Below are positions 27,283-43,439 of a DNA stretch of 64,000 nucleotides, piece by piece. The position numbers were made by a program, and so were the translations under genes. Position 1 is the first letter of the stretch; each line of letters opens with the position of its first letter. Where the stretch lies: the NCBI RefSeq assembly GCF_002760615.1, contig NZ_AWWI01000181.1, positions 1 to 64,000 of the forward strand. The letters run 5' to 3'. The notes beneath the pieces are model-generated. The model was not told where the DNA came from and ran no database searches. It was given only the letters and a program-made list of their open reading frames with translations. This DNA is from Puniceibacterium antarcticum. GTDB lineage: Bacteria > Pseudomonadota > Alphaproteobacteria > Rhodobacterales > Rhodobacteraceae.

Positions 27283-27645
27283 CTATGTGAGAAGCTGTGT
27301 GAGCGCGGTGGTCAGATCAGCGTCTCTGAACGGCTTGTTAAGTACGATGTGGTCACGAAAGCCCTCCCTCATCTCAGGTCTGTCATTTCCGGTGCAGAAG
27401 ATGAAGGGGACGCCGCTTTTCAACAGAGCGTCGGCTACGCTGCTGCTGTCGTCTCCACCCAGGTTCATGTCCAGCGTCGCTGCGTCGAAAAATTCAGATT
27501 CGATGAGAGAAACTGCCTTTTTGACCGTGGCGGCGCTGGTCACTGACCGGCATCCGAGGTCTTCCAGGATACCCTCGACCATCATCAAGATCAGCATCTC
27601 GTCCTCGACGACGAGGATGCGGCGACCGGACAGCAATTCACTCAT
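27283..27645 (-). CDS. single-domain response regulator
   Basis: This 120-residue receiver-only protein has the acidic pair in RRILVVEDEMLIL, the phosphoacceptor Asp in AATLDMNLGGD (about residue 59), FCTGND and the conserved Lys in VLNKPF. There is no output domain. It overlaps the upstream histidine-kinase gene by eight bases, so the two form a pair. Stand-alone receivers next to HWE/HisKA2 kinases in alphaproteobacteria often relay to other proteins in general-stress signalling. Confidence 0.9.
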   Translation of the reverse strand: MSELLSGRRILVVEDEMLILMMVEGILEDLGCRSVTSAATVKKAVSLIESEFFDAATLDMNLGGDDSSSVADALLKSGVPFIFCTGNDRPEMREGFRDHIVLNKPFRDADLTTALTQLLT

Positions 27646-28783
27646 GGTCGGACACGGGGGCGGGTATTTTCATCGTGCAGACCACCCCTTCAGTACGATA
27701 ATCGAGTTGCACCGTACCATCCAACTCATGCGCAAGGCCTCGTTCCAGCACATGCGAGCCGAACCCTTTGCGCAACGGCGATGTCACAACCGGTCCTTCC
27801 TTTTCCGTCCAGATCAAAACCAGCCGCCGACCCGTTGGTGATGACTCGACCGACCACTCGATCCGGATCGATCCATACTCGTTGGAGAAGGCCCCGTACT
27901 TGATGGCATTGGTTGCCAACTCGTTAAAAGCGATGCCAAGTGCCAGCGCCGCTTTTGGTGCGAACCGGATGTTCTCGCCGCTGATCGCGACGCGTCCAGA
28001 CCGTTCGTCAAGCCCGCCAAACGGCTCCAACGCGTCGCGGAGCACATCCAAAAGACCGGCGCTGTGCCATTTCTCGCGGCTCAGAAGATCGTGTGACCGG
28101 GAGAGGGCAAACAGGCGGCTTTCCACGGCTTTCCGCATCTCCTTCGGGTCGGCGTTCGCCCGCGCCGCCTGCGACACGATCGATTGAACGGTCGCCAGGG
28201 TGTTCTTCACGCGGTGGCTCAGCTCATCGATAAGCATCCGGGAATGGGCCTGTTCGTTCTTGTAAGAGGTCAGATCGACGAAGGACGCGAAGTACTGGAT
28301 TATGTCGCCATCATCGTTCCTGACCGGACTGACGAAGAGGGTCGCCCAGAACTTGCTGCCGTCCTTGCGGCGGTAGTGGATTTCGAAATCGACCTCAGAC
28401 AGCCCTTCGAACGCCTCGCGGATGAGCGCCAGCGCCTCTTCATCGTCAACATGGGCCATGAAGAAGTTGAAGCTCTGGCCTAGAACATCCTCGCGGATAT
28501 AACCGGTCAACTCGAGAAAGGCGTCGTTGGCAAAGATGATCGGATGATCCGTTTCGCAGGCATCCGCGAACACCATCGCCATCCGCGTCGTCTCGGCTGC
28601 GACGACAAACGGCCCGAGGTCGTCCTGAAAGCCCTCGACTTTGCCTTCGGCAGACTTCTGATCTTTGGACTTGCTGTCGTGGTTCGGCACTTGGAGATCC
28701 CCCGTGAAAGCTTGGCCGAAACCCGCAAATGCGGAACACCTGTTGACCGTGTCCTTGGTCGAGTAAAACGAAGGTCGACTCAA
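27638..28783 (-). CDS. HWE-family sensor histidine kinase with a LOV-like PAS domain
   Basis: The 381-residue cytosolic protein has a PAS domain (residues about 65-180: HPIIFANDAFLELTGY, then REDVLGQSFNFFMA) and a kinase core with the phosphoacceptor His in LIDELSHRVKNTLATVQSIV, N-box GIAFNELATNAIKYGAFS and the W-x-E of LIWTEKEGP that defines HWE kinases. The PAS sequence is close to LOV photosensors, but the flavin-adduct Cys of GRNCRF is Phe (GQSFNF), so blue-light adduct chemistry is not expected. The true start may be internal, for example GTG at residue 32. It is paired with the adjacent response regulator. Confidence 0.88.
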   Translation of the reverse strand: MSRPSFYSTKDTVNRCSAFAGFGQAFTGDLQVPNHDSKSKDQKSAEGKVEGFQDDLGPFVVAAETTRMAMVFADACETDHPIIFANDAFLELTGYIREDVLGQSFNFFMAHVDDEEALALIREAFEGLSEVDFEIHYRRKDGSKFWATLFVSPVRNDDGDIIQYFASFVDLTSYKNEQAHSRMLIDELSHRVKNTLATVQSIVSQAARANADPKEMRKAVESRLFALSRSHDLLSREKWHSAGLLDVLRDALEPFGGLDERSGRVAISGENIRFAPKAALALGIAFNELATNAIKYGAFSNEYGSIRIEWSVESSPTGRRLVLIWTEKEGPVVTSPLRKGFGSHVLERGLAHELDGTVQLDYRTEGVVCTMKIPAPVSDHE

Positions 28784-29004: not shown

Positions 29005-29388
29005 TCAGGTTGGAATTTCTGATGAGTGCCAGCCCCAGATAAGGTAGACCCCCGTCAGCATCACGTAGGCCGCGCCGAAAACGGTACCGCCAACCAGCGT
29101 GGGGACGGGGCCAAGTCCGAGGCCGACCGACAGGATGCTGGCCGCCATCAAGCCTAAAAAGGCCCAGTGAACGCGGTCGAGAACAAACTTTCCGACGAGT
29201 GTTCCTGCCAAGGCTCCAACAAGCCCACCGACACCGATACAAGTCCAGAGAAGGCCAGTTCCGGTTGTTCCCCAGTCCAGCTGGTTCGCGACGAGCTGGC
29301 CGCCGAAGGACCAGAGGGCCGTGCTCGCGGCCCCCATCAGGAGAGATGCCGAGATCAGTCGTAGGACCGGCCCCGTCATCGGGGGCAG
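29005..29388 (-). pseudogene. fragment of an MFS transporter
   Basis: The minus frame reads TGPVLRLISASLLMGAASTA, LLWTCIGVGGLVGALAGTLV and GAAYVMLTGVYLIWGWHSSE, three to four membrane helices of an MFS permease of the arabinose-efflux-like type. Both ends are missing: upstream sequence changes at about 29390 and the C-terminus stops early. Confidence 0.65.
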
Positions 29389-29404
29389 ACCACCTGAGCG
29401 GCCG

Positions 29405-29745
29405 CTGAAAGCCGCAAGGAACAGGGCCTCGTGTTGGGCATGAACTGCAAGGACAATATGACCCTCCCGCAGGTGGGCGATCTGACCGCCGGGCCGTTTG
29501 TATCTGACGGGGCCGAGATCGCCATTTTCGACCAGTACCGCGACAAGCTGTCGATCAAGGCCCCGGGCTGGCGGCAGAAGGTCGGCAACCTTTCGGGCGG
29601 CAACCAACAGAAGATCGTGATCGGCAAATGGCTGTCGATGCAGCCCAAGGTTCTGATCGTGGACGAACCCACGCGCGGCATCGATGTTGGGTCTAAATCC
29701 GAGATCCACAACCTTATCCGCGACTTGGCTAAACAGGGCTATTGT
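29405..29745 (+). pseudogene. C-terminal fragment of an RbsA/XylG-like sugar ABC ATPase
   Basis: RKEQGLVLGMNCKDNMTLP, VGNLSGGNQQKIVIGKWL (signature) and VLIVDEPTRGIDVGSKSEIH (Walker B and D-loop) come from the second nucleotide-binding domain of a two-domain sugar ATPase. Homology begins in mid-protein at about 29405 and ends at LAKQGY near 29742. It is more similar to ribose/xylose-type ATPases than to the LsrA gene of this window by inspection. Confidence 0.8.
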
Positions 29746-29981
29746 CCGGACGGAGTTGTTGGCGCTTGATGCAGCGAAGGACCCGTTCGAGCGCGCGCGA
29801 TCAAGACGGGAGCCCAGATCATCCGCTGTGACGCTGCAACCACTTTCCGTAATCTCTCAGCCCGTCGTGGATACCCTGGGGTAGCTGCACCGGCGTAATT
29901 TGAACGACATAGCATCCTATCCCTTTGGGGGAATTGGCCGGAATTTAGGTGTGGCAAATGCAGCGGCTTCAAGTTGAGCGG

Positions 29982-30281
29982 CTACGAACCTTGTACCAGA
30001 ACTGGGCTGAAATAGGTTTTGGTCCGCCCGCCAATTGTGATTGGGTCGATCATCCTGACGCAGGTCTGATAATGCTCTGTCTTGCGGTGCTCATCCAGCG
30101 CCGCATCGCTTTCAAAGATTTCATAGACGAAAAAGTTGTTATTGTTCTCGGGGTCATGGAGCAGGTCAAACCGGATATTTCCGGGCTCCTTGCGGGTGCC
30201 TTCGCAGTTGATAGTGAAGGCTTCGAGGAATGTGTCCCGCGTGCCGTCCTGAACCTGAATGTTCACGAGTTGAATGAGCAT
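29982..30281 (-). CDS. lsrG: LsrG, phospho-AI-2 isomerase
   Basis: From MLIQLVNIQVQDG the 99-residue protein is an antibiotic-biosynthesis-monooxygenase-fold protein: EAFTINCEGTRKEPGNIRFD, FVYEIFESDAALDEHRKTEHY. This is the pattern of LsrG, which isomerises phosphorylated autoinducer-2 (P-DPD) to 3-hydroxy-5-phosphonooxypentane-2,4-dione. It follows lsrK by 35 bases. Longer frames to 30404 overlap lsrK and lack homology. Confidence 0.85.
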   Translation of the reverse strand: MLIQLVNIQVQDGTRDTFLEAFTINCEGTRKEPGNIRFDLLHDPENNNNFFVYEIFESDAALDEHRKTEHYQTCVRMIDPITIGGRTKTYFSPVLVQGS

Positions 30282-30316
30282 GAGCGTATCCTTTCGAGGG
30301 AAGAGGTCAAAGAGTG

Positions 30317-31852
30317 TCAGAGCTGTGTGCCAGGGGCCTGCCACATGGAGGTGGTGACGCCGGAGGCGACCAGTGCGCGTTGCAGGGCATATGCCTTTGC
30401 CCATCGGTCACCGGCGTCGTCGTACATATCCTTCAGCGCGGTGTTTGGCGTGAATTCTCTCTCAATCGCAGACCATGCAGCGCCGGCTTCTTGCAGGGTT
30501 GCGAACAGACCTGCGCCTGTCGCCGCTGCTGCAGCACAGCCTTGTGCGGTGGCTTCCTTGACACGGGGCGTGGCGACAGTGAGTCCGGTCACATCGGCAA
30601 GGATCTGCGCCCAATGCGGTGACCTGGATGCGCCACCGGCAAAGACGATCCGATCCGGTCGCTTGCCCGTCAGGTCAAACACGGCCTGGAGGTTGCGATG
30701 CGCCACGATGGCGGCGTTTTCCTGCAGCGCGCGAAAGATCGCGGCAGGGCCAGAGGCCGTGGGGTCAATCGAGAGGTTGAGAAGCGATGGCGCGGCGTGG
30801 AACCATTCACCATAGCGCATCACATCGGAAAAGATCGGTATGATGCCATGGGCCCCCGGCGGCACGTCTTTTGATGCGGCCTCAAGCTCGGTATAGCCTT
30901 TGCCTTGGCCGAAAGCGTCCCGGAACCAGCGCATCACCGCACCGGTGAAAAAGCTGATGGCTTCGGCCTGATTTAGGTCTGGTACAACATGCGGATTGAT
31001 CCGCAGATTCATCGTGGGATCGGTGAGCGTCAGCGGCACATTGACCACCTGTTGCCAGAAGGTGCCGCCCAGAACGGCACAGTCCCCGTCCTGCACGACC
31101 CCAAGGCCAAGCGCGCCGGTCTGGCAATCGCCGCCGCCCGCGACGACAAGCGTGCCTGGCGCAAGGCCTGTCGCCTCGGCTGCCGCGTCGTGGACATGGC
31201 CGATCGGCTCGCCGGTGTGGACCGAGCGGGGAAAGAGATCCATGGGCAGGCCGACGGTTTCAAGCGCATCTGACAGGGGTTTGCGATCCTTCAGGCCGAT
31301 CAGACCGGTGGTGCCCGCGTTGGATGGCTCGGAGGTCAGTTCGCCAGAGAGGCGATAAAGCACCCAGTCCGACAGCATCGTCAACGCGCGTGCACGGTCC
31401 AGCACCTCTGGCATGTGCGTGCGCAGCCAGATCAGGCGGGGCAGGGCGCCAAGGGCATAGGTCTGGCCGGATCTGGCGTAGATATCCTCCTCCAGCCCGG
31501 GGTGGCCCGCCTTGAGGGCGCGCACCTCTGCATCCGCGCGCGCGTCCACATTGGCACAGGCCCAGATTTCCGCACCGCTTTCGTCATGGAGCACGAAGGC
31601 CTCGCGCATGGCAGTCGCGCTCACCGCCTTGATGTCTTTGGGATCAACGCTGGTCGTTGCAATCACCTCGCGGCAGCAGCGGGCCAAGGCCGCCCAGTTT
31701 CCGGCCGTGTCAAAATCCATCGATCCGGGATAGCGCGGGTCGCTGGCATGCCACCATTCCTGCCCCGAGGCGCCGATTTCCGCGCCCGTTTCGTCAAAAA
31801 GCACCGCGCGTCCGCTGCCTGTGCCTGCATCAATGGCCATAAAATACTGCAT
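30317..31852 (-). CDS. lsrK: LsrK, autoinducer-2 kinase
   Basis: The 511-residue FGGY kinase opens with FMAIDAGTGSGRAVLFDETG and shows SMDFDTAGNW, KAVSATAMREAF, GGGDCQTGALGLG and FAGGASRSPHWAQILADVTG, matching LsrK rather than xylulo- or glycerol kinases. It phosphorylates cytoplasmic AI-2, trapping it and making the LsrR inducer. Three bases separate it from lsrR, with lsrG next, so the three genes form one minus-strand operon. Confidence 0.92.
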   Translation of the reverse strand: MQYFMAIDAGTGSGRAVLFDETGAEIGASGQEWWHASDPRYPGSMDFDTAGNWAALARCCREVIATTSVDPKDIKAVSATAMREAFVLHDESGAEIWACANVDARADAEVRALKAGHPGLEEDIYARSGQTYALGALPRLIWLRTHMPEVLDRARALTMLSDWVLYRLSGELTSEPSNAGTTGLIGLKDRKPLSDALETVGLPMDLFPRSVHTGEPIGHVHDAAAEATGLAPGTLVVAGGGDCQTGALGLGVVQDGDCAVLGGTFWQQVVNVPLTLTDPTMNLRINPHVVPDLNQAEAISFFTGAVMRWFRDAFGQGKGYTELEAASKDVPPGAHGIIPIFSDVMRYGEWFHAAPSLLNLSIDPTASGPAAIFRALQENAAIVAHRNLQAVFDLTGKRPDRIVFAGGASRSPHWAQILADVTGLTVATPRVKEATAQGCAAAAATGAGLFATLQEAGAAWSAIEREFTPNTALKDMYDDAGDRWAKAYALQRALVASGVTTSMWQAPGTQL

Positions 31853-31855
31853 GTT

Positions 31856-32794
31856 TCAGCCTTCTGCCGCGTCAAGAAGTGCAAGCGCGGTTGGTTCGTC
31901 TGTGATCAGAATGTCGAGAATATTGCCGCGCAAGGCCGCAAGGATAGGGGTCGTCTTGGTCGGCCCGCCGGCCGCGCCGATGACTTTGTCCGAGGCGCGC
32001 AGTTGTGTCAGATCGACGCCGACCACGCGGTCATGCAGCGGCAGTGCAATGTCCTGACCATTGCGGTCAAAGAACCGGCAGAGGATATCCCCCCGGGCCC
32101 CGCCACGCCGCAGCGGGTCGATATCCCCCGGCGAAAGATAGTCCTGTTTGAAGACGGTTGCGCCCTCGCTTACCCCACCGATGCCCACAAGCTTGTATTC
32201 AGCCTCAAGCGCCTTTGTCATGAGCGAGGCGACAGAGGGTTCCTGCATCAGGGCCTTGGCGAGTTCCGGGGTCGACACTACAAGAGGGGCGGGAATGATG
32301 TTGACGTTCTTGTGCCAGTTCGCCTCGCGCATCCCTTCGACATAGGTTTGCACGCCGCCGGTCAGCGCATAAAGACCGATGCCACGTTCCTTGGCGGTAT
32401 ATCCAAGCATGCGGACGGAATGGGTGATCGTCTCGCCCCAGCCCACGGACAGGCTGTCGCCCGGCGCCAGCTTTTGCATAAGGTATTGCGCCGCGGCCTG
32501 ACCGATCCGCATGTTGGCATCTTCGACCGTGCTTTCGGGGATGACGCGGCAATCGCTGAGCCCGAACTGCTGCTTCATGCGGCTTTCCAGCGCAAGACAG
32601 CCTTGCTGGCGGGAATTGATGCGCAGCTGGATAAAGCCCGAGGTGCGCCCGACATCGAGCAGGCGCGACACCTTGATGCGCGACAGGTTGAGGATCTCGC
32701 CCACTTCGCTCTGGGTTAGGCCGTCATTGTAATAGAGCCATGCCACGCGCGCGAGCAGGGCCTCGTCCGTTTCGTCCGGCGCTGTGTCTGCCAT
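31856..32794 (-). CDS. lsrR: LsrR, SorC/DeoR-type repressor of the lsr genes
   Basis: This 312-residue protein has the SorC-family helix-turn-helix (VAWLYYNDGLTQSEVGEILN, then LSRIKVSRLLD) and the sugar-binding domain with SVGWGETI, GVVGVGG-like VGIGGVSEGA and GDILCRFFD. LsrR represses the lsr operons until phospho-AI-2 binds. It is divergent from lsrA, and repeated TGAACA motifs lie in the gap. Confidence 0.92.
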   Translation of the reverse strand: MADTAPDETDEALLARVAWLYYNDGLTQSEVGEILNLSRIKVSRLLDVGRTSGFIQLRINSRQQGCLALESRMKQQFGLSDCRVIPESTVEDANMRIGQAAAQYLMQKLAPGDSLSVGWGETITHSVRMLGYTAKERGIGLYALTGGVQTYVEGMREANWHKNVNIIPAPLVVSTPELAKALMQEPSVASLMTKALEAEYKLVGIGGVSEGATVFKQDYLSPGDIDPLRRGGARGDILCRFFDRNGQDIALPLHDRVVGVDLTQLRASDKVIGAAGGPTKTTPILAALRGNILDILITDEPTALALLDAAEG

Positions 32795-32851
32795 GATTTA
32801 TCCTCCCGCTCGCACAACTGTGCGGATCATTTAAGTAATCACAAATACATT

Positions 32852-32963
32852 TGAACAAGTCAATATCTGTATTTACCGGACAAATTTCCGATAATGATAG
32901 CATGAATCGGTTGACATGAAGGTAGAGTGGTGAACAAATGAACATGTAATATGCATATGAACG
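32852..32963. promoter_or_regulatory. lsr intergenic control region with repeated TGAACA
   Basis: The 221-base gap between lsrR and lsrA is AT-rich and holds TGAACA at 32852-32857, 32931-32936 and 32939-32944, plus TGAACG at 32958-32963. The eight-base spacing of the middle pair is suggestive of a regulator array. A TTGACA (32911-32916) could be a -35 box for lsrA. Assignment to LsrR is inferred. Confidence 0.4.
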
Positions 32964-33015
32964 CGACACGGGAGGCTGCGGGAAGATGCATGACGAATGA
33001 CGTTGAGGAGGCGTT

Positions 33016-34491
33016 ATGGACCCTGTGCTTGCCGAGCTGACCTCTGTTTCAAAGAGTTATGGCCCTGTTTCCGTACTCAAGAAGGTGGATTTCTCAGTGC
33101 GTGCCGGCGAGGTTCATGCGCTTCTGGGCGGGAACGGGGCGGGCAAATCGACTCTGATGAAGATTCTTGTGGGGCTGGTTCCGGCAACCGACGGACAGGT
33201 GCACATCGGCGGTCAGCCCTTGTCGCCCGTCACACCGGCGCAGGCACAGGCGATGGGGCTCTATCTTGTGCCACAAGAGGCACATATCTTTCCCAATCAG
33301 TCCGTTCTTGAAAACATCTGTGTCGGGCTGTCGAAACCGGCCGCCGCCTATCGCGCGCGGATCGAGGCATTGATCGCCCAGATCGGCGTTGCGCTTTCTC
33401 CCGACACAAAGGCCGCAACCCTCGAGATTGCGGATCGTCAGATCGTTGAGATCCTGCGCGGGCTGGTGCGCGAGGCAAAGGTTCTCATCCTCGATGAACC
33501 CACATCAGCCCTGACCCCTCATGAGGTGGACACGCTGTTTTCCCGGATGCGGGCGCTGCGCGAGTCGGGGCACGGGCTGGTGTTCATTTCTCACAAGTTG
33601 CACGAATTGCGCGCCGTCTCGGACAGGATCACCGTCTTGCGCGACGGCTATGTCGTGTTCAGCGAAATGATGTCCGACAGCGCCGATGCCGATATTCTGG
33701 CCGCGATGAGCCCAGGCGTGACCGCCCTTGATGCGCGCGTTGCAGGCAAGGCGCAATCCAAGGATATCCTCTTGTCCCTCAAAGGGATGAGCGGCGAAGG
33801 CTTTGTCGACATCTCGTTTGATATCCACAAGGGCGAGGTTCTTGGCCTGACCGGTGTGGTCGGGGCGGGCCGCACGGAGCTTGCAGAAACGCTGGTCGGC
33901 TTGCGGATGCGCAGTCAGGGCAAGGTGACGCTGGACGGAACACCCTTTGTCGCCAAAAGCCCGAGCGAGGCCGTGCGGCAGGGCGTCGTTCATCTGTCGG
34001 AAGACCGCCAGCAATACGGCCTGTTTCTGGACGCGCCGCTGTTCTGGAATACATCCTCTTTTGTCTATGACAGGCTGCCTTTTTTCCTGCGCCCGGGCCG
34101 GGAACGCGCGCGTTTCGACAGCTATCGCGACATGCTGGGCATCAAATGCGCGAGTCCCGACCAGCCTGTGAGCAGCCTGTCAGGCGGCAACCAGCAAAAG
34201 GTGCTGCTGTCCAAATGTCTGGTGGCCAAGCCAAAGCTGCTGATCTTAGATGAACCCACGCGCGGCGTCGATGTTGGTGCCCGCAACGACATCTACCGCA
34301 TCATCGAAACGCTGGCGGCCGAGGGCACCTCGGTTTTGCTGATCTCGTCAGATTTTGACGAAGTTGTCCGGCTGTCGGACCGGATTGCCGTGATGGCTGG
34401 CGGCTATCTTGCAGGCGCGCTGCCGGGCGGTGCCTCGACCGATGAAATTGCTGAATTGGCCTTTGAGGCCGGGGGACTGGCGCATGCTTGA
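33016..34491 (+). CDS. lsrA: LsrA, AI-2 ABC importer ATPase
   Basis: The 491-residue protein has two nucleotide-binding domains: GGNGAGKSTLMKIL, then LILDEPTSALTPHEV in the first, and TGVVGAGRTELAETL, SLSGGNQQKVLLSK, LILDEPTRGVDVGARNDIY in the second. The first-domain signature is reduced (EIADRQIVEILRG), as is usual for LsrA/RbsA proteins. GAGGAGG precedes the ATG. It powers AI-2 uptake with LsrC, LsrD and LsrB. Confidence 0.92.
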   Translation: MDPVLAELTSVSKSYGPVSVLKKVDFSVRAGEVHALLGGNGAGKSTLMKILVGLVPATDGQVHIGGQPLSPVTPAQAQAMGLYLVPQEAHIFPNQSVLENICVGLSKPAAAYRARIEALIAQIGVALSPDTKAATLEIADRQIVEILRGLVREAKVLILDEPTSALTPHEVDTLFSRMRALRESGHGLVFISHKLHELRAVSDRITVLRDGYVVFSEMMSDSADADILAAMSPGVTALDARVAGKAQSKDILLSLKGMSGEGFVDISFDIHKGEVLGLTGVVGAGRTELAETLVGLRMRSQGKVTLDGTPFVAKSPSEAVRQGVVHLSEDRQQYGLFLDAPLFWNTSSFVYDRLPFFLRPGRERARFDSYRDMLGIKCASPDQPVSSLSGGNQQKVLLSKCLVAKPKLLILDEPTRGVDVGARNDIYRIIETLAAEGTSVLLISSDFDEVVRLSDRIAVMAGGYLAGALPGGASTDEIAELAFEAGGLAHA

Positions 34492-35494
34492 ACGGATTGC
34501 CCGCGACCGGATCGCGACACTTTTCCTTGTGACCGTTGCCGTGCTGCTGGCCGTGGGATTGGCGGCGCCGGGGTTCCTTGCGCCGCGCACGGCGTCGATC
34601 ATCTGGTCGAACGGTCTGGTGCTGATGCTGGTGGCGCTGGGGATTTTCCCAGTCATCCTCACCCGCAACATTGACGTCTCTGGCGGGTCCATTCTGGGCC
34701 TGTCTGCGGTGACACTTGGCCTGTCCCTGAACGCGGGGATTGCCATGCCGGTCGCCATTTCCATGGCGCTGGGGGCCGGGATCGCGGCGGGCGCGCTGAA
34801 CGGTTTTCTGGTGGCGGTTCTGGGCGTGCCCTCGATCGTTGCAACCCTTGGCACGCTTGGGCTGTTTCGCGGTGTGATGCTGATCACAACCGGCGGCGAA
34901 TGGATCGAGGATTTGCCCGAGCCGCTCAAGATGCTGGGTGCGCGGTCTTTTGCAGGACTGTCTGTCGTAGGTATCGTGGCCGCCGTTGCGATCCTCGTCG
35001 TCTGGCTCTTTCTGCGTTCGCGACGCGGACGTTGGGTGATGGTGACGGGCGACAACCGCGCCGCGGCGCGCCACCTTGGGCTGCCGGTCAAACGGATCGA
35101 GTTTCTGGCCTTTGTCTGGGCCGGGGTTATGGCGTCCGTGGCCGGGATCACCTTTGCGGCGCAGATCGGGTTCGTGCCCAATCAGGCGGGCAGCGGAATC
35201 GAACTGCGCGCCATTGCGGCACTGGTTCTGGGGGGCGTGAGCCTGCTCGGCGGCGTCGGGTCTGTGGCAGGTGTCGTGATCGGGGTCATCTTCTTCACTT
35301 CAATCGACACAACGCTCGTGTTTCTGAAGATCCCCGCCTACTGGAACGACCTGATCGGCGGCGCCATGCTCTTGGGTGTGCTGCTGATCGACGGACGCCT
35401 GCGCATCGCGCTTGAGGCACGGGATCGCGCCGCCCGCTACAGGCGCGGCGATCAGACATCTTCGACAACGCGCAAGCTGGAGGACGCTGCATGA
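34484..35494 (+). CDS. lsrC: LsrC, AI-2 ABC importer permease
   Basis: The ATG at 34484 overlaps the lsrA end by eight bases and gives 336 residues; an upstream start at 34409 would overlap far more. It has about nine membrane helices and sugar-permease motifs (VILTRNIDVSGGSILGL, GVPSIVATLGTLGLFRGVML, GDNRAAARHLGLPVK, VLGGVSLLGGVGSVAGVVIG). Confidence 0.9.
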   Translation: MLERIARDRIATLFLVTVAVLLAVGLAAPGFLAPRTASIIWSNGLVLMLVALGIFPVILTRNIDVSGGSILGLSAVTLGLSLNAGIAMPVAISMALGAGIAAGALNGFLVAVLGVPSIVATLGTLGLFRGVMLITTGGEWIEDLPEPLKMLGARSFAGLSVVGIVAAVAILVVWLFLRSRRGRWVMVTGDNRAAARHLGLPVKRIEFLAFVWAGVMASVAGITFAAQIGFVPNQAGSGIELRAIAALVLGGVSLLGGVGSVAGVVIGVIFFTSIDTTLVFLKIPAYWNDLIGGAMLLGVLLIDGRLRIALEARDRAARYRRGDQTSSTTRKLEDAA

Positions 35495-36474
35495 AACGGT
35501 ATCTGATGCGGTGGGAGGTTCTTCTTCTCGGGTTACTGGTGCTTGAGCTGCTGGTCTTCGGGTTCATAAATCCGCGCTTTCTGCGCCCAAGTTCGATGTT
35601 GTTCGGGACCTCCGATTTCGTGCAGGTCGGCATCGTGGCGGTTCCGCTGACCTTCGTGATCATCGCGGGCGGTATTGATGTCAGCTTTGCCTCTACCGTC
35701 GGGCTGTGCGCAATCACCTTCGGCATCGCCAACTTCTTTGGCCTGCCTCTGCCCGTAGCACTCTTGGTGGGGTTTGCGACTGGGGCGCTGGCCGGTCTCC
35801 TGAACGCCACGATCATCCGTTTGACGGGGCTGCAGCCCTTGGTGGTTACGCTTGGCTCACTCTACATGTTTTCCGGGGCGGCAACGGTGCTGTCCGGTGT
35901 TGTCGGCGCGAACGGGTATGAAGGCATCGGCGGCTTTCCGGCAGCCTTCACGGCGCTGGGATATGCGCAGATCTTTGGTCTGCCTATGCCACTTTTTGTG
36001 TTTCTGAGCTTTTCGGCGGTGCTGCTGGTGTTGCTGCATCTGACTCGCTTTGGCCGATTGGTGTTCCAGATCGGTCAGAACGAAAACGCGGCACGCCATT
36101 CGGGGATGCCCGTGGCCCGCGTGCAGATGCTGACCTATGTCATGACCGGTGTTGCTGCCGCGCTCGCCGGCGTGATGCTGTCGGCCTATTTCGGATCGGC
36201 CCGCGTTGATCTGGGCAGTGCCACGCTGTTGCCTGCGATCACGGCGGCGGTCCTGGGCGGCGCGTCGATCTATGGCGGGCAGGGATCGGTTCTGGGCACG
36301 ATCATCGCCACGTTCATCATCGGATATCTCCAGCAGGGTCTGCAGATGAGCGGTGTTCCAAGTCAGATTTCCAGCGCGCTGTCCGGGGCGCTGCTGGTTC
36401 TTGTCGTGGCCTTGCGCCACGGCGCTGCGCTCTTGCGCGATATTATTCCGGTTCGAACGCGTCAGATCGACTGA
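35491..36474 (+). CDS. lsrD: LsrD, AI-2 ABC importer permease
   Basis: The 327-residue permease starts within the lsrC stop (ATGA). Motifs are FVIIAGGIDVSFASTVGL, QPLVVTLGSLYMFSGAATVL, GQNENAARHSGMPVARVQ and AVLGGASIYGGQGSVLGTII. It pairs with LsrC as the second half of the channel. Confidence 0.9.
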   Translation: MKRYLMRWEVLLLGLLVLELLVFGFINPRFLRPSSMLFGTSDFVQVGIVAVPLTFVIIAGGIDVSFASTVGLCAITFGIANFFGLPLPVALLVGFATGALAGLLNATIIRLTGLQPLVVTLGSLYMFSGAATVLSGVVGANGYEGIGGFPAAFTALGYAQIFGLPMPLFVFLSFSAVLLVLLHLTRFGRLVFQIGQNENAARHSGMPVARVQMLTYVMTGVAAALAGVMLSAYFGSARVDLGSATLLPAITAAVLGGASIYGGQGSVLGTIIATFIIGYLQQGLQMSGVPSQISSALSGALLVLVVALRHGAALLRDIIPVRTRQID

Positions 36475-36506
36475 GGCGGAACAGAGTTCTTTAGGGAGGA
36501 ACGACT

Positions 36507-37523
36507 ATGCGTAAGACACTGAAATTTGTGGGCACCGTGGCCGCAGGGCTGATGATGGCGAATGTTGCCGTCGCTCAGGACATAGCCTTTATTCCGAAAC
36601 TTGTCGGCGTGGGCTTTTTCACGTCCGGCGGCAAGGGCGCCGTGGACATGGGCAAGGAACTGGGCGTCAACGTCACCTATGACGGCCCGACCGAACCGAG
36701 CGTTTCCGGTCAGGTGCAATTCGTGAACAACTTTGTTAATCAGGGCTACGGCGCGGTGATCCTGTCATCCGTTTCCCCGGACGGTCTGTGCCCGGCGCTG
36801 AAACAGGCGATGGCGCGCGGTGTGCTTGTCATGACCTGGGATTCCGACGTGAACCCTGAATGCCGGTCCTACTATGTGAACCAGGGCACGCCGGACCAGC
36901 TGGGTGGCCTGCTGGTGGACATGGCGAATGACGGGCTTGAGGGCAAAGAAAAGGCAAAGGTTGCGTTCTTCTATTCCTCGCCGACCGTGACCGACCAGAA
37001 CGCCTGGGCCGAAGCCGCCAAGGCGAAGATTGCGGCCGAGCATCCGAGCTGGGAAGTCGTGACGACCCAATACGGATACAACGACGCGCAGAAGTCCCTG
37101 CAGACCGCCGAAAGCATCCTGTCCGCCTATCCCGACCTCGACGCCATCATTGCGCCCGATGCCAACGCGCTTCCGGCGGCGGCTCAGGCGGCGGAAAACC
37201 TTGATCGTGCAGGCAATCTCACCATCGTCGGCTTTTCCACCCCGAACGTGATGCGCTCCTACGTCCAGCGCGGCACGGTCAAACGGTTTGGTCTTTGGGA
37301 CGTGACACAACAGGGCGCGATCTCGGTAGCTGTGGCGGCGCATGTGCTTGAAAACGGGCCGCTGAATGTCGGCGACAAGATCGACGTTCCGGGCATCGGT
37401 GAAGTCGAAGTCTCGCCCAACTCGGTGCAGGGCTATGACTATGAAGCCGAGGGCAACGGCATCGTGCTTTTGCCGGAACGCACCGTGTTCACCGCCGAGA
37501 ATATCGACAATTTCGATTTCTGA
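36507..37523 (+). CDS. lsrB: LsrB, AI-2-binding periplasmic protein
   Basis: The 338-residue precursor has a signal peptide ending VAVAQD. The residues that contact AI-2 in Salmonella LsrB have counterparts in place: Lys in FIPKLVG (residue 31), Asp in WDSDVNPE, Asp-Gln in VTDQNAW, and Pro and Ala in [10 protein letters not shown]. This supports a real AI-2 receptor rather than a ribose or rhamnose binder. It has a strong AGGGAGGA ribosome site, 32 bases after lsrD. Confidence 0.92.
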
Positions 37524-37586
37524 CCCCAACACCTCTTCAAAAGCGGGGGCGTTCGCGCCTCCGCCGATCCAACAAGGAGCCTCCTC

Positions 37587-38828
37587 ATGCAATCTCGCTG
37601 GAACGACACTGACGCCCAGAGCTTTGTCGACGCCGCCAAGGCGCAGGGTCAGCCCGCTGCGCTGGGTCTGCGGATATACACTTCGCGTCTGATTGGGCAG
37701 GATCCAGACCTTGTTCTGCATGGGGGAGGGAATACGTCGGTCAAGGTTCCAGAGGCAGCGGGTGGGGCCGTTATCCACGTCAAAGGCTCTGGCTGGGACC
37801 TCAGCGATATCGAGGCGCCCGGACTCCCGGCGATGCGCCTTGAGCCGCTTCTGGCAAGTAAAGACATCCCCCATATGTCTGACGAGGATATGGTGGCCTT
37901 TCTGCGGTCCCATCTGCTGGAACCGTCAGCCCCGAACCCATCTACCGAAGCGCTGCTGCATGCCTACATGCCGCATGCGTTCGTCGACCACACACATGCC
38001 ACGGCCACACTTGTCCTTGCCGACCAGGCGGACATGCGGGGCGTGGTCCAGAGAATCTATGGCGGACGCGTCGGTTTCGTGCCCTACGTCATGCCGGGCT
38101 ATGCCTTGAGCCACGCCTGCAACGAAGCACTTAATCGTGATCCAAGCGTTCAGGGGCTCTGGCTAGAACAGCACGGTCTGTTCACCTTTGCCGAGACCGG
38201 GCGTGCGAGCTATGAGCTGATGATTGAGTTTGTCACGATGGCCGAAGAGTTTCTGTCTTCTCGTGGAGTGGCGGTGCCGGGACCAGAGCAGACTGACCGC
38301 GAGGCGCCGGCTTCTCTTAGTCTCGCTCTCGCTGACGCGCTTGGAGCACATGGCGGCCTTGGCACGGCGCCGGTGCTGGATTTTCGCACAACACCCTCCA
38401 TCCGGGCCTATCTCGACCGGGACAATATGTTCGAGTTGTCTGGACGTGGGACTGTGACACCTGACCATGTGATCCGGATCAAGCCGTTCCCAATGATCCT
38501 GTCAGCTAATGATGCCCGGGACGAGGTCGATGCGACCCTCGCCAAATATGCTGCACGCTATCATGCGTATTTTGACCGCAACGCGCTCAATACGGCAGAG
38601 CTAAAAGTGATGCTCGACCCGCTTCCACGGGCAGTGCTGGTGCCGGGTGTTGGGCTTTACGGTGTTGGTAATACAGAAAAGTCGGCGCATGTCGCCGGCG
38701 ATCTGCTTGAACAGACCACACGGATCGTCAACGCTGCAGAGGATTACGGACAATTCACACCGATTTCCGAATTCGATCTTTTTAATATGGAATACTGGTC
38801 TCTCGAACAGGCCAAACTAAAAAAATAA
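37587..38828 (+). CDS. class II aldolase/adducin-family protein in the lsrF position
   Basis: This 413-residue protein matches the aldolase half of bifunctional rhamnulose-1-phosphate aldolase/short-chain dehydrogenase proteins (about 690 residues): LVLHGGGNTSVKV, HVKGSGWDL, the metal ligands VDHTHATAT and LWLEQHGLFTF, and the end FNMEYWSLEQAKLKK. In the bifunctional family EYWSLEQAK is followed by the dehydrogenase domain, which is absent; the stop comes two codons later and an IS3 remnant begins about 40 bases on. It lies where lsrF normally stands and no LsrF is present in the window, so it may replace LsrF in phospho-AI-2 breakdown. That role is inference. Confidence 0.8.
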   Translation: MQSRWNDTDAQSFVDAAKAQGQPAALGLRIYTSRLIGQDPDLVLHGGGNTSVKVPEAAGGAVIHVKGSGWDLSDIEAPGLPAMRLEPLLASKDIPHMSDEDMVAFLRSHLLEPSAPNPSTEALLHAYMPHAFVDHTHATATLVLADQADMRGVVQRIYGGRVGFVPYVMPGYALSHACNEALNRDPSVQGLWLEQHGLFTFAETGRASYELMIEFVTMAEEFLSSRGVAVPGPEQTDREAPASLSLALADALGAHGGLGTAPVLDFRTTPSIRAYLDRDNMFELSGRGTVTPDHVIRIKPFPMILSANDARDEVDATLAKYAARYHAYFDRNALNTAELKVMLDPLPRAVLVPGVGLYGVGNTEKSAHVAGDLLEQTTRIVNAAEDYGQFTPISEFDLFNMEYWSLEQAKLKK

Positions 38829-39491: not shown

Positions 39492-39815
39492 TCACTTGAT
39501 TAACATGCTTTCAGCTGGCGTGCCTGCATCGACAGCCTCTTGGAACCAGTTCGGCTTGCGACCACGACCGGTCCAAGTCAGAGCAGGGTTCTCCGGATGC
39601 TGGTACTTGGGGGCTGAAACAGTCGCCTTTCCCTTGGCTTTGCTATCACCGGTCAGCTCAGCGATCGTAAAGCCCATCTCACGGGCTTTGGCTTCTACCG
39701 CTGCCAAAGCTTCGCTTTTCCGCCGCGCCTCAAAGTTTTTGATTGCCTTGGTAACATCCTTCTCAAGCTGCTTCAGCTCGTCGAGCGATAGTTGGTCTAA
39801 GTCTACTCTTGCCAT
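39492..39815 (-). CDS. H-NS family nucleoid protein (HvrA-like)
   Basis: The 107-residue protein has an N-terminal coiled-coil oligomerisation part (SLDELKQLEKDVTKAIKNFE) and the H-NS C-terminal DNA-binding core, YQHPENPALTWTGRGRKPNW, where GRGRKP is the AT-hook-like minor-groove motif. Such proteins silence AT-rich acquired DNA. Start MARVDLDQL has a GGAGAAG site. Isolated gene in an IS-rich segment. Confidence 0.9.
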   Translation of the reverse strand: MARVDLDQLSLDELKQLEKDVTKAIKNFEARRKSEALAAVEAKAREMGFTIAELTGDSKAKGKATVSAPKYQHPENPALTWTGRGRKPNWFQEAVDAGTPAESMLIK

Positions 39816-40184: not shown

Positions 40185-43100
40185 TCAGAACCGGAGGCTG
40201 AAGTCTGCCTTGAGGCCGTTACTCGACATGTCGTTAGAGAACTGACCTTGATAGGAGACGCCAAAATCAGTGTTGTCGCTGATCTTTATGTCGACCCCAA
40301 AAGAGATCCGGGCTGCATCGCGGCCAATCGGTGCACCTGCGACCAGGAAGCTTCCACCATTGGCAAAAGCCATCTCGCTTTCGGGTGTCGCATCGCCAAA
40401 CACATGCTGCCAGCTGGCCATTGCGTTCCAGCGCAGCGCGGTCTTGTCCTGATCAAAGTTCCCTGACGCCCTGACACCTGCAGTCGTAAAGGTGGCTTCG
40501 GATGTGTTGTCATCGGCCGAAAGTGCTGCCGCTCCACCATTTTCCGAGAAGCTGTCCGTCGAAAGAATGGCATGCGATAGGTTTGCGAAGGGCGACATCT
40601 GGATCTGATTGCCGAGCTCCAGAGCATAGCTGGCCTCCCCAAAGAACTGGGTCAGGCCAGAGTCATAATCGGCCTTCAGAGTGTCGGAGAAGCTGCCGAT
40701 GTTAACAGACCGCTTTGTTTCCAGCTGGTTCAGGCTGTATGCTGCGCCTGCCCTGAGCGAGAGTTTCCCGATCTCGGTGCCGCCATAAACGCCGACATGA
40801 TAGCTTTCGATGTCGACCGATCCGGTGGTACGATCACTGTCAACTGAGGATTTTCCCCAGCCGGTCAGGACACCAAGACGCAGATCGCCGGATACAAGTC
40901 CGTCAGCGCCAAAGAAGACTCCGCCGCCGTTTACGTCATAGGACGCCGCATTGTCATCGCTGTCAAACTTCGTGCGTGCGCCGTAACCAGAGGTCCAGAC
41001 GCCGTCACCCTGAGAGTTCAGACGTTCCAGAGCCATGTCGCTGACAACGCGGGAATTGCCGAGCAGAGCAGATTGGGCGCTGGCATGCTCTTCCCCGGAG
41101 ACCTGATCGAAAGCCTTGCTCGCCGTTTCATCATCGCTGAAAAGGAAGCCATTGAACAGAGACAGGCTGCCGGATCCCGCAGTCTGATCGAGCAGGTCAA
41201 GCGCTGCGGCGGCAGCGCGCTGGTTGTTTGTCTGCGCCGCAGCGGTAAAGGAGCGGGCACCATTCGTGGTCAGCTGCAAGGTCACGTCGGTCGAGGTGTA
41301 GAAGAGCTGTGACCTGATGAACGCAGAGTCGATCTGCAGATCGCTGAACTGCCCGGTCACATTGTCCGCCGTCAGGAAGGTGTAACTTTGTCCATTGCTG
41401 TAGCTGACGTTTGAATCAAGGGCGATCGCGTTGACTGTCGCGCCCTCAATGGCCGCAGTGCCGCTGACGAGGGTGCGGTCCGAGCTGCCATTGTTGGAGA
41501 ATTCAAGATCATAGAATGACCCCGCCGCGAGCGTCAGATCGCCATTGACCGTGACCGTGCCGATCGACTCGCCGGGCGACAGACGGCCGTCCTTTTTCAC
41601 CAAGGTGCTGGCCACAGTGCCGTTACCCCCCAGGGTGCCCCCGCTTGCAATATCAAGCGCACTTCCCCAGCTGCCGTTGACCGCAAAACGCCCACCATTG
41701 ACGAAGGTCGTGCCGGTGAACTGCGAACCGTCGCCGGTGTAGACCAGACTGCCCTCGCCGCGCTTTTCAAAGCTGCCCGTGCCGGACACATCGTTGTCGA
41801 AGGTGCTGTCGATAAGGGTGTTCACCACCAGCTGACCTGTGGCATCGACCTCAATATCGCCGGTGCCGAAGGCCTTGCCGTGGGTACCGACAAGCATTCC
41901 CCCGCCGACAACCGTTCCACCCGCATAGCTGTTGAGGCCGGTGAGCATCAGCGTGCCGGTACCCAATTTTGTCAGCTTGCCCGCGCCGGAAATATCGTTG
42001 TTCCACGAATCGAAGGCATTGAAGCCATCAAGGCTCTTGTCCATGGTGACCGTGACATCGTCCCAGAAGGCTCCGTAACCGTCCGCTGCCGCATAGAGGT
42101 TCAGACGACCGTAGCCTTCTGCGTCATCCATCACGGGATATCCCGACGCCAGAGCGGTTGTCGCCAGAATGGCGCGGCGCTGATCCGCGGTCAGATAGGG
42201 CATGCGGGTTTCAAGCAGCACCTCAGCGCCCTTGGGGACATAAACCGGCTTGTCGGTGGCATTGATCTGCGTAAACCCATAAGTCAGCCGATCTGCCACA
42301 TAGGCGGCATTTGCCTCGCGGTCCGCAAAACGGTCGACCGAAAGGTCACCTGAATGGGCCGCGACGTAAAGATCGGACGCCGTCGCGGAATCTGTCTCTT
42401 TCATCAGCCAGGCTTGGGCCTGAGTGTAGGCGTCTTTCTTGAGGGTCTGCCAGTCAAAGCCGTCGTCGCCATTCTCACGATTGAGGTTGAAGACGACGGA
42501 TGCGGTCCCGAGCATGCGCCCACCGATGACATCAAGCGGCGAGTGCATGCCGGCAAGAATGCGGCTGTCACCCATCGAGATCGCACGCGTCACAAGCTCC
42601 TGAAAACGCTGCGGCACCATATAGGCCAGGGCAAGGGCATCACGCCAGGCTTCTGCGGTATGGCCGCTCGGGAAACCGCCGTCCTTGATTGGCGTCGTGC
42701 TCTTGGCGGGCTCAAGCGTCGGTACGACGACAACATCTCCGGACCACCGCCAGGGGCGGGCGTATTTGAAATACCGCTTCGCAGGCTCTGTCGAGGCGCT
42801 GTAACCCATTCGGCCGACGAGTTCGACGGCAAGGCCGAGATCCTCGTTACCTTCCCACCAGCCGGCGCCATTGTTGTTGCCACCATCATCGTATTTTACG
42901 GTTGTGGCATCCTCTGCGACGTCGAGAATGGTTGTGAACTGTTTTGTGCCCTTCACCCAGGCATCCTGCAGTGACCCCAGTCCGGTCAACACGCTGTAAC
43001 CCTTGGCACGGCGGTCATCCAGATAGGCTTCCTTCGCTTCCTGTTCTGTGCGGTTGCGGGTGATGTCAACAACATATTGAATATTGTGGTCGTGCACGGC

Positions 43101-43439
43101 CTGGTTCAGGATCTTGCCATCTGTGGCGCTGCCCGGGATGCCGTCCCAGTCGGTCTTTACCACTGCGGGGAAGTCACCGACCGCCGGAGCGCTTACATCA
43201 GCATCGACATAAGGCGTGCGGGGTTCCCAGATTTCCAGAAAGCCACTGAGCAACCTGACGCCCGCATTGGTTTCCTTTGTTGCATAGCGGGCATCGCCCC
43301 GCTCGTTCGTGAAACCGGTGTCCATATAGGCCGGAACGTCTTTGTTTAGATAGGCTTCCTGCGCCGTTCCCACGGCAGGGCAGGCGATAAATACAGCTAG
43401 TGCAGTGGAAACTTTCAATTTCGATTTCATGTCAGACAC
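40185..43439 (-). CDS. PAP2 acid phosphatase fused to an autotransporter
   Basis: This 1084-residue protein has a signal peptide (cleavage near VGTAQE), a class A acid phosphatase/PAP2 domain with the full catalytic set KRYFKYARP (KX6RP, 221-229), FPSGH (256-260) and SRILAGMHSPLD (SRX5HX3D, 292-303), then autotransporter beta-strand repeats (GAGKLTKLGTGTLMLTGLNS near 485, a second set near 555-590) and a C-terminal beta-barrel (about 815-1084) ending in FSLRF, the outer-membrane assembly signal. The phosphatase would be exposed on or released from the cell surface and could free phosphate from organic esters. A start at MKSKLK, three codons later, is equally possible. Confidence 0.9.
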   Translation of the reverse strand: MSDMKSKLKVSTALAVFIACPAVGTAQEAYLNKDVPAYMDTGFTNERGDARYATKETNAGVRLLSGFLEIWEPRTPYVDADVSAPAVGDFPAVVKTDWDGIPGSATDGKILNQAVHDHNIQYVVDITRNRTEQEAKEAYLDDRRAKGYSVLTGLGSLQDAWVKGTKQFTTILDVAEDATTVKYDDGGNNNGAGWWEGNEDLGLAVELVGRMGYSASTEPAKRYFKYARPWRWSGDVVVVPTLEPAKSTTPIKDGGFPSGHTAEAWRDALALAYMVPQRFQELVTRAISMGDSRILAGMHSPLDVIGGRMLGTASVVFNLNRENGDDGFDWQTLKKDAYTQAQAWLMKETDSATASDLYVAAHSGDLSVDRFADREANAAYVADRLTYGFTQINATDKPVYVPKGAEVLLETRMPYLTADQRRAILATTALASGYPVMDDAEGYGRLNLYAAADGYGAFWDDVTVTMDKSLDGFNAFDSWNNDISGAGKLTKLGTGTLMLTGLNSYAGGTVVGGGMLVGTHGKAFGTGDIEVDATGQLVVNTLIDSTFDNDVSGTGSFEKRGEGSLVYTGDGSQFTGTTFVNGGRFAVNGSWGSALDIASGGTLGGNGTVASTLVKKDGRLSPGESIGTVTVNGDLTLAAGSFYDLEFSNNGSSDRTLVSGTAAIEGATVNAIALDSNVSYSNGQSYTFLTADNVTGQFSDLQIDSAFIRSQLFYTSTDVTLQLTTNGARSFTAAAQTNNQRAAAAALDLLDQTAGSGSLSLFNGFLFSDDETASKAFDQVSGEEHASAQSALLGNSRVVSDMALERLNSQGDGVWTSGYGARTKFDSDDNAASYDVNGGGVFFGADGLVSGDLRLGVLTGWGKSSVDSDRTTGSVDIESYHVGVYGGTEIGKLSLRAGAAYSLNQLETKRSVNIGSFSDTLKADYDSGLTQFFGEASYALELGNQIQMSPFANLSHAILSTDSFSENGGAAALSADDNTSEATFTTAGVRASGNFDQDKTALRWNAMASWQHVFGDATPESEMAFANGGSFLVAGAPIGRDAARISFGVDIKISDNTDFGVSYQGQFSNDMSSNGLKADFSLRF

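What the first reader, a model, noticed from the sequence alone, without database searches (positions are those of the whole stretch)
29982..38828. AI-2 (Lsr) locus with class II aldolase in place of LsrF
lsrG, K, R, A, C, D and B are all present, and LsrB keeps the AI-2-contact residues. LsrF thiolase is missing; a class II aldolase gene occupies its place. Phospho-HPD made by LsrG could be cleaved by an aldolase rather than transferred to CoA, giving a different end of AI-2 catabolism.
Basis: partly seen in the sequence, partly recalled or inferred. Interest (0 to 1): 0.6.

Follow-up and report, generated by a model that had tools for sequence, protein, structure and literature searches.

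The report
Aldolase replaces LsrF in AI-2 breakdown
In many alphaproteobacteria, including the alfalfa symbiont Sinorhizobium meliloti, the gene cluster that imports and breaks down the bacterial signal AI-2 lacks the usual last enzyme (the thiolase LsrF) and has in its place a metal-type aldolase related to enzymes that salvage leftovers of S-adenosylmethionine, which probably cuts the signal molecule in a different way.

Summary
Window 29982-38828 is a complete Lsr (AI-2) locus, lsrG-lsrK-lsrR <> lsrA-C-D-B, ending in a 413-aa class II aldolase. LsrF was not found in the 5.5-Mb genome.

This is a conserved second type of lsr locus. Of 80 named LsrB loci (the best 80 of 326), 43 carry the aldolase, 33 LsrF, none both, 4 neither. 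S. meliloti 1021 is of this type.

The lsr-linked aldolases form one clade (SH-aLRT 100) and keep three metal histidines and the catalytic glutamate (47 of 47). Their nearest relatives are aldolase/SDR fusions, often beside mtnA/mtnP (20 of 32), as in the "DHAP shunt" that splits 5-deoxyribulose-1-phosphate. The LsrG product, phospho-HPD, has that skeleton with a ketone in place of the C4 hydroxyl.

Best reading: the aldolase replaces LsrF and releases DHAP without CoA, most likely with acetate; the lost SDR half fits a non-aldehyde product. The chemistry is inferred, and on the LsrK tree the swap is a single event. It makes a stated open question, AI-2's fate without LsrF, directly testable in alphaproteobacteria.

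The parts
29982..30281 (-). lsrG, phospho-DPD isomerase, 99 aa; beside lsrK as in the other aldolase-type loci
   Evidence: NCBIfam PRK10486.1 99.5 bits, below its cut-off of 135; 20 positions invariant in 53 aldolase-type and 36 LsrF-type sequences
30317..31852 (-). lsrK, AI-2 kinase
   Evidence: NCBIfam PRK10939.1 774.5 bits, cut-off 528; 51% identical to E. coli LsrK
31856..32794 (-). lsrR, repressor
   Evidence: NCBIfam PRK15418.1 277.4 bits, below cut-off 486; 40% identical to E. coli LsrR
32795..33015 (.). divergent intergenic region lsrR/lsrA
   Evidence: position between the two ORFs; no sigma-70 consensus found
33016..34491 (+). lsrA, ABC transporter ATPase
   Evidence: NCBIfam PRK15439.1 670.3 bits, cut-off 586
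34484..35494 (+). lsrC, permease
   Evidence: NCBIfam PRK15432.1 346.6 bits, below cut-off 388; start fitted to Alloyangia lsrC
35491..36474 (+). lsrD, permease
   Evidence: NCBIfam PRK15038.1 388.8 bits, below cut-off 500
36507..37523 (+). lsrB, AI-2 binding protein
   Evidence: NCBIfam PRK15408.1 619.9 bits, cut-off 384; 72% identical to E. coli LsrB; presumed AI-2 contact residues kept
37587..38828 (+). class II aldolase, 413 aa, in the place of lsrF; metal ligands H135, H137, H196 and catalytic E121; no SDR half
   Evidence: PF00596; residues invariant in 47 lsr-linked and 32 fusion sequences; AF2 model pLDDT 88.3 matched to class II aldolases; 63 bp behind lsrB, no terminator-like site between them

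Best explanation
The cluster is an AI-2 uptake and degradation system of a distinct 'aldolase type', in which a class II aldolase does the last, C-C bond-breaking step that LsrF does in E. coli. Shown by sequence: transporter, kinase, repressor and isomerase are present; LsrF is not found; the aldolase stands behind lsrB, has an intact metal site, and belongs to a clade of lsr-linked aldolases whose nearest relatives are the aldolase halves of aldolase/SDR fusions, many of them beside MTA-salvage genes. Inferred: LsrK makes phospho-DPD and LsrG turns it into phospho-HPD (3-hydroxy-2,4-pentanedione-5-phosphate), as in E. coli. Read from the phosphate end, phospho-HPD is a 5-deoxypentulose-1-phosphate with a ketone at C4. 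The aldolase holds the DHAP half on its metal, as DrdA does, and breaks the C3-C4 bond, giving DHAP. If the C4 ketone is hydrated, the same retro-aldol step releases acetate, with no CoA. That would explain why the SDR half, which in the fusions presumably handles an aldehyde product, is missing. I put about 0.75 on the aldolase being the functional replacement of LsrF, 0.6 on it acting on the LsrG product to give DHAP, and 0.42 on acetate as co-product.
For: Aldolase and LsrF exclude each other: 43 / 33 / 0 both / 4 neither of 80 loci. lsrG lies beside lsrK in 40 of 40 aldolase loci where both are seen and 0 of 33 LsrF loci. No LsrF in the own genome or in G290, G345, G528 beyond weak partial hits. 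39 complete aldolases of 410-419 aa in the 80 loci. One clade, SH-aLRT 100. Metal ligands and catalytic Glu invariant. mtn genes in reach in 20 of 32 fusion loci, in 7 of 7 read with 7-8 kb on each side. After 3m4r (Z 28.4) the model's top matches are DrdA with DHAP (6btg, Z 18.8), tied with FucA (18.7). LsrG constant residues the same in both locus types. DrdA splits 5-deoxyribulose-1-P to DHAP and acetaldehyde (PMC6079011, passages); LsrF gives DHAP and acetyl-CoA (PMC8016206, passages). No conserved dehydrogenase near the locus.
Against: No biochemical data. The swap is one event on the LsrK tree, so co-occurrence has little independent replication. Loci of this type with no intact aldolase exist: L077, L089, L099, and truncated or broken copies in L094 and L118, so it may be dispensable. 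12 of 32 fusion loci showed no mtn gene, two of them (L137, L138) with 8 kb read on each side and a different, glpD-containing context. The class II aldolase fold also holds epimerases, dehydratases and other enzymes, and the fold match does not separate DrdA from FucA. The exact sister of the lsr clade is unsure (long-branch warning). A hydrolytic cleavage of a 1,3-diketone is, to my knowledge, not described for this superfamily.
Confidence: 0.6

Rival explanations
1. Two steps: a separate reductase first turns phospho-HPD into a 5-deoxypentulose-1-phosphate, which the aldolase then splits in the classical way into DHAP and acetaldehyde.
For: This is the known reaction type of DrdA and Ald2 (PMC6079011 passages; PMC10986504 passages); nearest relatives are fused to an SDR (SDR domain shown for L017) and often beside mtn genes.
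Against: The lsr version has lost the SDR half; within 6 kb of the aldolase only 4 of 46 loci show a relative of that SDR, 3 of 46 of one ALDH, 2 of 46 of one Zn-ADH and 0 of 46 of another ADH, at scattered distances (only these four queries).
Confidence: 0.17
2. The aldolase serves another substrate of the same pathway or side products, for example an epimerase-, dehydratase- or decarboxylase-like step on phospho-DPD, and AI-2 breakdown ends at the LsrG product or goes on through a general enzyme.
For: The fold is shared with ribulose-5-P 4-epimerase (1jdi), the YgbL family (6vop) and the MTA-salvage enzyme APIP (4m6r); aldolase-less loci of this type exist (L077, L089, L099).
Against: Aldolase-type metal ligands and Glu are kept and the nearest relatives point to DHAP-forming cleavage, but that is indirect.
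Confidence: 0.13
3. The aldolase is a general 5-deoxypentulose-1-phosphate or sugar-phosphate aldolase that happens to be carried with the lsr genes and has no part in AI-2 breakdown.
For: Aldolases of this kind are promiscuous (PMC6079011, passages); relatives serve other sugars.
Against: No mtn gene in the lsr-linked loci (0 of 52 entries); rhamnulose-type fusions are only 27-30% identical; the place behind lsrB together with absence of LsrF holds across several families; own clade with eight positions fixed differently from the fusions.
Confidence: 0.1

Closest known systems
Canonical lsr operon (E. coli lsrK-lsrR / lsrACDBFG)
   Same: Transporter, kinase, repressor and isomerase are homologous gene by gene; LsrB 72%, LsrK 51% identical; divergent layout.
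   Different: No LsrF; class II aldolase behind lsrB; lsrG beside lsrK instead of behind lsrF.
LsrF, CoA-dependent thiolase (class I aldolase fold, TIM barrel)
   Same: Position behind lsrB and proposed substrate and DHAP product.
   Different: Different superfamily; no sequence match; metal-dependent class II aldolase fold; no CoA step expected (inferred).
DHAP-shunt aldolases DrdA / Ald2 (5-deoxyribulose-1-P and 5-methylthioribulose-1-P)
   Same: Same superfamily and metal-site type; DrdA with DHAP is among the best solved-structure matches (6btg, Z 18.8); fusion relatives often lie beside mtnA/mtnP.
   Different: DrdA is small (203-207 residues in the chains) and only 18% identical over the aligned part; the lsr aldolase has two halves (413 aa), sits with lsr genes and never with mtn genes in what I read.
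NCBIfam PRK08324 aldolase/SDR fusions
   Same: Aldolase part 42-49% identical in the 32 compared; same active-site residues.
   Different: SDR half lost; eight positions fixed differently; separate clade.
Rhamnulose-1-phosphate aldolase (RhaD; fusion TIGR02632)
   Same: Same superfamily, metal ligands and catalytic Glu align with E. coli RhaD.
   Different: 27-30% identity; two of three fetched rhamnulose-type fusions lie beside rhaS and a rhamnose isomerase; separate branch.

Membership tests
Lsr AI-2 uptake/processing system | LsrACDB transporter with AI-2-type LsrB | tested here: met
   NCBIfam hits, LsrA and LsrB above cut-off, LsrC and LsrD below; LsrB residues kept (contact list recalled)
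Lsr AI-2 uptake/processing system | LsrK kinase and LsrR regulator, divergent from the transporter genes | tested here: met
   LsrK above cut-off, LsrR best hit below cut-off; layout
Lsr AI-2 uptake/processing system | LsrG isomerase | tested here: met
   Best hit PRK10486.1 but below cut-off; constant residues shared with LsrF-type LsrG
Lsr AI-2 uptake/processing system | LsrF thiolase (canonical form) | tested here: not met
   No match in locus or own genome; known to be missing in some LsrB bacteria (PMC7828210, passages)
LsrF family | Sequence kinship with E. coli LsrF | tested here: not met
   The locus gives no hit in the own-genome search with LsrF; the gene is PF00596
Class II aldolase/adducin superfamily | Aldolase_II domain and fold | tested here: met
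   PF00596 74.6 bits; fold matches 3m4r, 6btg, FucA, RhaD
Class II aldolase/adducin superfamily | Three metal-binding His and catalytic Glu of the aldolases (roles recalled) | tested here: met
   H135, H137, H196, E121 aligned with E. coli FucA and RhaD, invariant
DHAP-shunt (5-deoxyribulose-1-P / MTRu-1-P) aldolase | Neighbouring mtnK/mtnP and mtnA | tested here: not met
   0 of 52 lsr-linked entries, although 20 of 32 fusion relatives have them
DHAP-shunt (5-deoxyribulose-1-P / MTRu-1-P) aldolase | Cleavage of 5-deoxyribulose-1-P or MTRu-1-P to DHAP and an aldehyde | not testable with these tools
   Needs an enzyme assay
Aldolase/SDR fusion (PRK08324 group) | C-terminal SDR domain | tested here: not met
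   413 aa, model matched to position 428 of 685; 39 complete lsr-linked ORFs are 410-419 aa
RhaD (rhamnulose-1-P aldolase) | Close sequence kinship and rhamnose gene neighbours | tested here: not met
   27-30% identity to rhamnulose-type fusions, separate branch, lsr neighbours instead

The most novel reading that the evidence does not exclude
A class II aldolase related to SAM-byproduct salvage enzymes catalyses a CoA-free cleavage of a 1,3-diketone: hydrated phospho-HPD is split by a retro-aldol step into DHAP and acetate. This would be a new reaction for the superfamily and a second, independently evolved end of AI-2 catabolism in many alphaproteobacteria, among them S. meliloti and the present bacterium, in whose genome no luxS was found, so that it probably feeds on or listens to AI-2 made elsewhere or formed without LuxS.
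Probability: 0.42. Interest if true: 0.75.

Novelty: new variant of a known kind. Interest (0 to 1): 0.62.

Why it matters
A 2021 paper states that the metabolic fate of AI-2 in bacteria without an LsrF homologue 'has yet to be determined' (PMC7828210, passage; its example is Clostridium). For the alphaproteobacterial part of that group, including S. meliloti, a species whose AI-2 response has been studied (named in PMC2728841, passage), this gives one candidate gene, a predicted product and a simple assay. It also links two SAM-byproduct pathways: AI-2 breakdown and the 5-deoxyribose/methylthioribose shunt. If the product is acetate rather than acetyl-CoA, the energy yield of AI-2 as food differs, while DHAP, reported to repress lsr in an LsrR-dependent way in E. 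coli (PMC2728841, passage), would still be made.

Tried and rejected
Considered and rejected: (a) LsrF elsewhere in the own genome: none. (b) A hidden LsrF in relatives: the 27-29% partial hits in G290, G345 and G528 also occur in the LsrF-bearing G462, so I take them as a background family; G774 and G776, whose loci lack an intact aldolase, have 31-32% hits over about 250 residues, which I did not identify further. (c) An artefact of one genome: rejected. (d) RhaD: rejected. (e) A conserved partner dehydrogenase for an aldehyde product: not found with four queries. (f) Many independent swaps: not supported; the LsrK tree shows one change. The Cardiobacteriaceae locus (L074) is not in either tree, because its lsrK is not on the contig and its aldolase is split over two contigs. 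(g) Promoters and terminators: no sigma-70 consensus; five terminator-like sites, fewer than in shuffles (mean 7.7), none between lsrB and the aldolase. (h) The careful aldolase tree did not finish; the quick tree is used, with the tool's warning that the long row L136 may be misplaced beside the lsr clade.

One search counted 52 lsr-linked entries, five of them these short copies. The 20 of 32 count rests for 29 of the 32 on 1.5 kb or less of flank; with the wider L141 in place of L019 it is 21. The exclusivity count covers 80 of the 326 loci that one search found (the tool kept the best 80), so more distant LsrB loci were not examined; one such, Lacticaseibacillus paracasei (L163), is annotated with lsrF. 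In one search loci with neither gene (L053/L099, L077, L089) were labelled aldolase type by their gene order. The genome of L077 is not held and was not searched. Paper searches: all in openly licensed PMC papers; Pereira et al. 2008 on S. meliloti AI-2 is not held and may mention the gene.
Full report
What is there. The window holds lsrG (29982-30281, -), lsrK, lsrR, then divergently lsrA, lsrC, lsrD, lsrB and a 413-aa class II aldolase (37587-38828, +). LsrK, LsrA and LsrB pass NCBI's cut-offs; LsrC, LsrD, LsrR and LsrG are best hits below them. The aldolase matches PF00596 and the N-terminal part of NCBIfam's aldolase/SDR fusion models; the SDR half is missing. E. coli LsrF has no real match in the own genome (best E 0.31). 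No luxS was found there (the control search rings in 5 of 14 named genomes). The own genome has four further Aldolase_II matches elsewhere.

A conserved second type of lsr locus. The order lsrG-K-R <> A-C-D-B-aldolase is annotated on plasmids of Alloyangia pacifica, Paracoccus aminophilus, Thalassospira marina, Ensifer canadensis and a record labelled Roseateles sp. XES5, and is present on pSymB of S. meliloti 1021, whose record carries no annotation here. In the window's family 6 of 394 genomes hold LsrB at E <= 1e-60; in a class-wide draw only the own genome did, 1 of 385, so the system is rare. Of the five other family members, G290 and G345 have the aldolase type; G528 has the same gene order but a CRISPR-like repeat array (seen by eye) behind lsrB and no aldolase there; G462 and G349 have the LsrF type. 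G290, G345 and G528 show only 27-29% partial hits to LsrF; G462 and G349 hold LsrF at 67-71%, and their best aldolase match lies in frames of 692-717 codons, as in the fusions.

A named sample. A scan of GTDB species genomes with an LsrB alignment found 326 loci and kept the best 80. By tblastn 43 hold the aldolase, 33 LsrF, 0 both, 4 neither. Of the 43, 39 are complete ORFs of 410-419 aa; two are cut by contig ends (L057, L075), one is a stub of about 51 residues (L094) and one is broken (L118). Of the 4 with neither, L074 (a Cardiobacteriaceae MAG, gammaproteobacterium) holds the start of the gene at its contig end; the rest lies on another contig of that genome, 54% identical over residues 15-413, with a 55-base overlap, and no LsrF was found in that genome. 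L099 (same contig as G528's) has the repeat array, L089 an ORF nearby that reads as a transposase (by eye), L077 nothing like an aldolase. lsrG lies beside lsrK in 40 of 40 aldolase loci where both are seen and in 0 of 33 LsrF loci. The gap from lsrB to the aldolase, by BLAST ends, is 66-177 bp. LsrF-type loci include Enterobacterales, Pasteurellaceae and the alphaproteobacteria Pleomorphomonas, Cohaesibacter and Pseudovibrio.

One swap. A LsrK tree puts the 52 rows labelled aldolase type on one side of a branch, SH-aLRT 100 (labels by gene order, so a few aldolase-less loci are included). The exchange thus looks like one event in this sample, then kept or passed on across Rhodobacterales, Hyphomicrobiales (Rhizobiaceae, Kaistiaceae, Devosiaceae, Aurantimonadaceae) and Thalassospira. 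The exclusivity count must be read with that in mind. The Cardiobacteriaceae locus could not be placed.

Where the aldolase comes from. In a class-wide search 47 of 240 genomes have a relative; 47 of the 49 places other than the window's gene lie in open frames of 660 codons or more. The 32 fusion-length relatives compared (671-689 aa) are 42-49% identical over the aldolase part; the SDR domain was shown by Pfam for one of them (L017) and is annotated in three plasmid ones. In 20 of the 32 an mtnP, mtnA or mtnK gene lies in reach, though for 29 of them at most 1.5 kb on each side was read. In seven read with 7-8 kb on each side all seven show mtnP and/or mtnA. Two fusions from Agrobacterium and Rhizobium sit in a glpD-containing cluster and show no mtn gene. 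No lsr-linked entry shows an mtn gene (0 of 52). The lsr-linked aldolases form one clade of 48 rows, SH-aLRT 100, apart from the 32 fusions and three rhamnulose-type fusions; this is the quick tree and the exact sister is unsure.

Active site and fold. H135, H137, H196 and E121 align with the metal ligands and catalytic Glu of E. coli FucA and RhaD (roles recalled) and are invariant in 47 lsr-linked and 32 fusion sequences. Eight positions are fixed differently in the two groups, one of them (L198 against I) two residues after the third histidine. The AF2 model (pLDDT 88.3, pTM 0.88, 28 sequences) matches the class II aldolase domain 3m4r (Z 28.4), then, tied, DrdA with DHAP (6btg, 18.8) and FucA (18.7), and RhaD (about 16). 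The fold does not decide the substrate, and residues beyond about 228 were barely tested by that comparison.

How it probably works. In E. coli LsrK and LsrG turn AI-2 into an isomerised phosphate, and LsrF moves its acetyl group to CoA, leaving DHAP (PMC8016206, passages). LsrG of both locus types shares 22 positions at 95% or more, 20 of them invariant (53 and 36 sequences), so the intermediate should be the same. Drawn from the phosphate end it is CH2OP-CO-CHOH-CO-CH3; 5-deoxyribulose-1-phosphate, which DrdA splits into DHAP and acetaldehyde (PMC6079011, passages), is CH2OP-CO-CHOH-CHOH-CH3. The aldolase would hold the DHAP part on its metal in the same way. With the far ketone hydrated, the retro-aldol step yields acetate instead of acetaldehyde. 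The authors of the LsrF structure once considered acetate plus DHAP for LsrF itself (PMC2728841, passage). Ketones as partners are reported for rhamnulose-1-phosphate aldolases (title of Laurent et al. 2018 in the reference list of PMC6302742) and mentioned in the abstract of PMC6202814 (listing only). The missing SDR half and the lack of a conserved dehydrogenase nearby fit a product that is not an aldehyde. Beyond the cited facts this paragraph is inference.

Novelty. Papers seen describe S. meliloti's lsr uptake genes and kinase (PMC2443158, passage) and transfer of lsr to R. sphaeroides, R. capsulatus and S. meliloti (PMC3420918, passages); one says LsrF is not present in all LsrB bacteria and AI-2's fate there is undetermined (PMC7828210, passages). 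None of ten searches listed a paper whose title, abstract start or read passages propose a class II aldolase for this step; subscription papers could not be searched. I class it as a new variant of a known kind.

Noticed in passing
window 40185-43439 (-): A 1084-aa protein joins a PAP2 phosphatase domain, a passenger repeat and an autotransporter beta-domain.
   Followed up: no
window 29431-29769 (+) and 29005-29709 (-): Fragments of a sugar ABC ATPase (GguA-like C-terminal part) and, by eye, of an MFS transporter lie just outside the lsr locus: possible gene remnants at its border.
   Followed up: no
window 39492-39815 (-): A 107-aa H-NS-like protein (PF00816) follows the aldolase on the other strand.
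   Followed up: no
window 27283-28783 (-): A PAS/HWE histidine kinase next to a single-domain response regulator.
   Followed up: no
L074:4425-7164: In the Cardiobacteriaceae locus a flavin-reductase-like gene (just below Pfam cut-off) and a TPP enzyme lie between lsrB and the aldolase; the TPP enzyme might act on a two-carbon product.
   Followed up: partly
L053:2900-6000 (same as L099): A CRISPR-like repeat array stands directly behind lsrB where the aldolase should be, next to a Cas1-like ORF (both by eye).
   Followed up: no
L136, L139-L145: Aldolase/SDR fusions beside mtnP/mtnA look like an uncharacterised fused form of the DHAP-shunt aldolase common in alphaproteobacteria.
   Followed up: partly
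L137, L138: Other fusions of this family sit in clusters with glpD, sn-glycerol-1-phosphate dehydrogenase, a HAD hydrolase and an ABC transporter: another substrate is likely.
   Followed up: no
L163: A Lacticaseibacillus paracasei plasmid carries an lsr-like locus with lsrF, a cupin gene and rbsD beside lsrK, and no gene annotated as lsrG.
   Followed up: no
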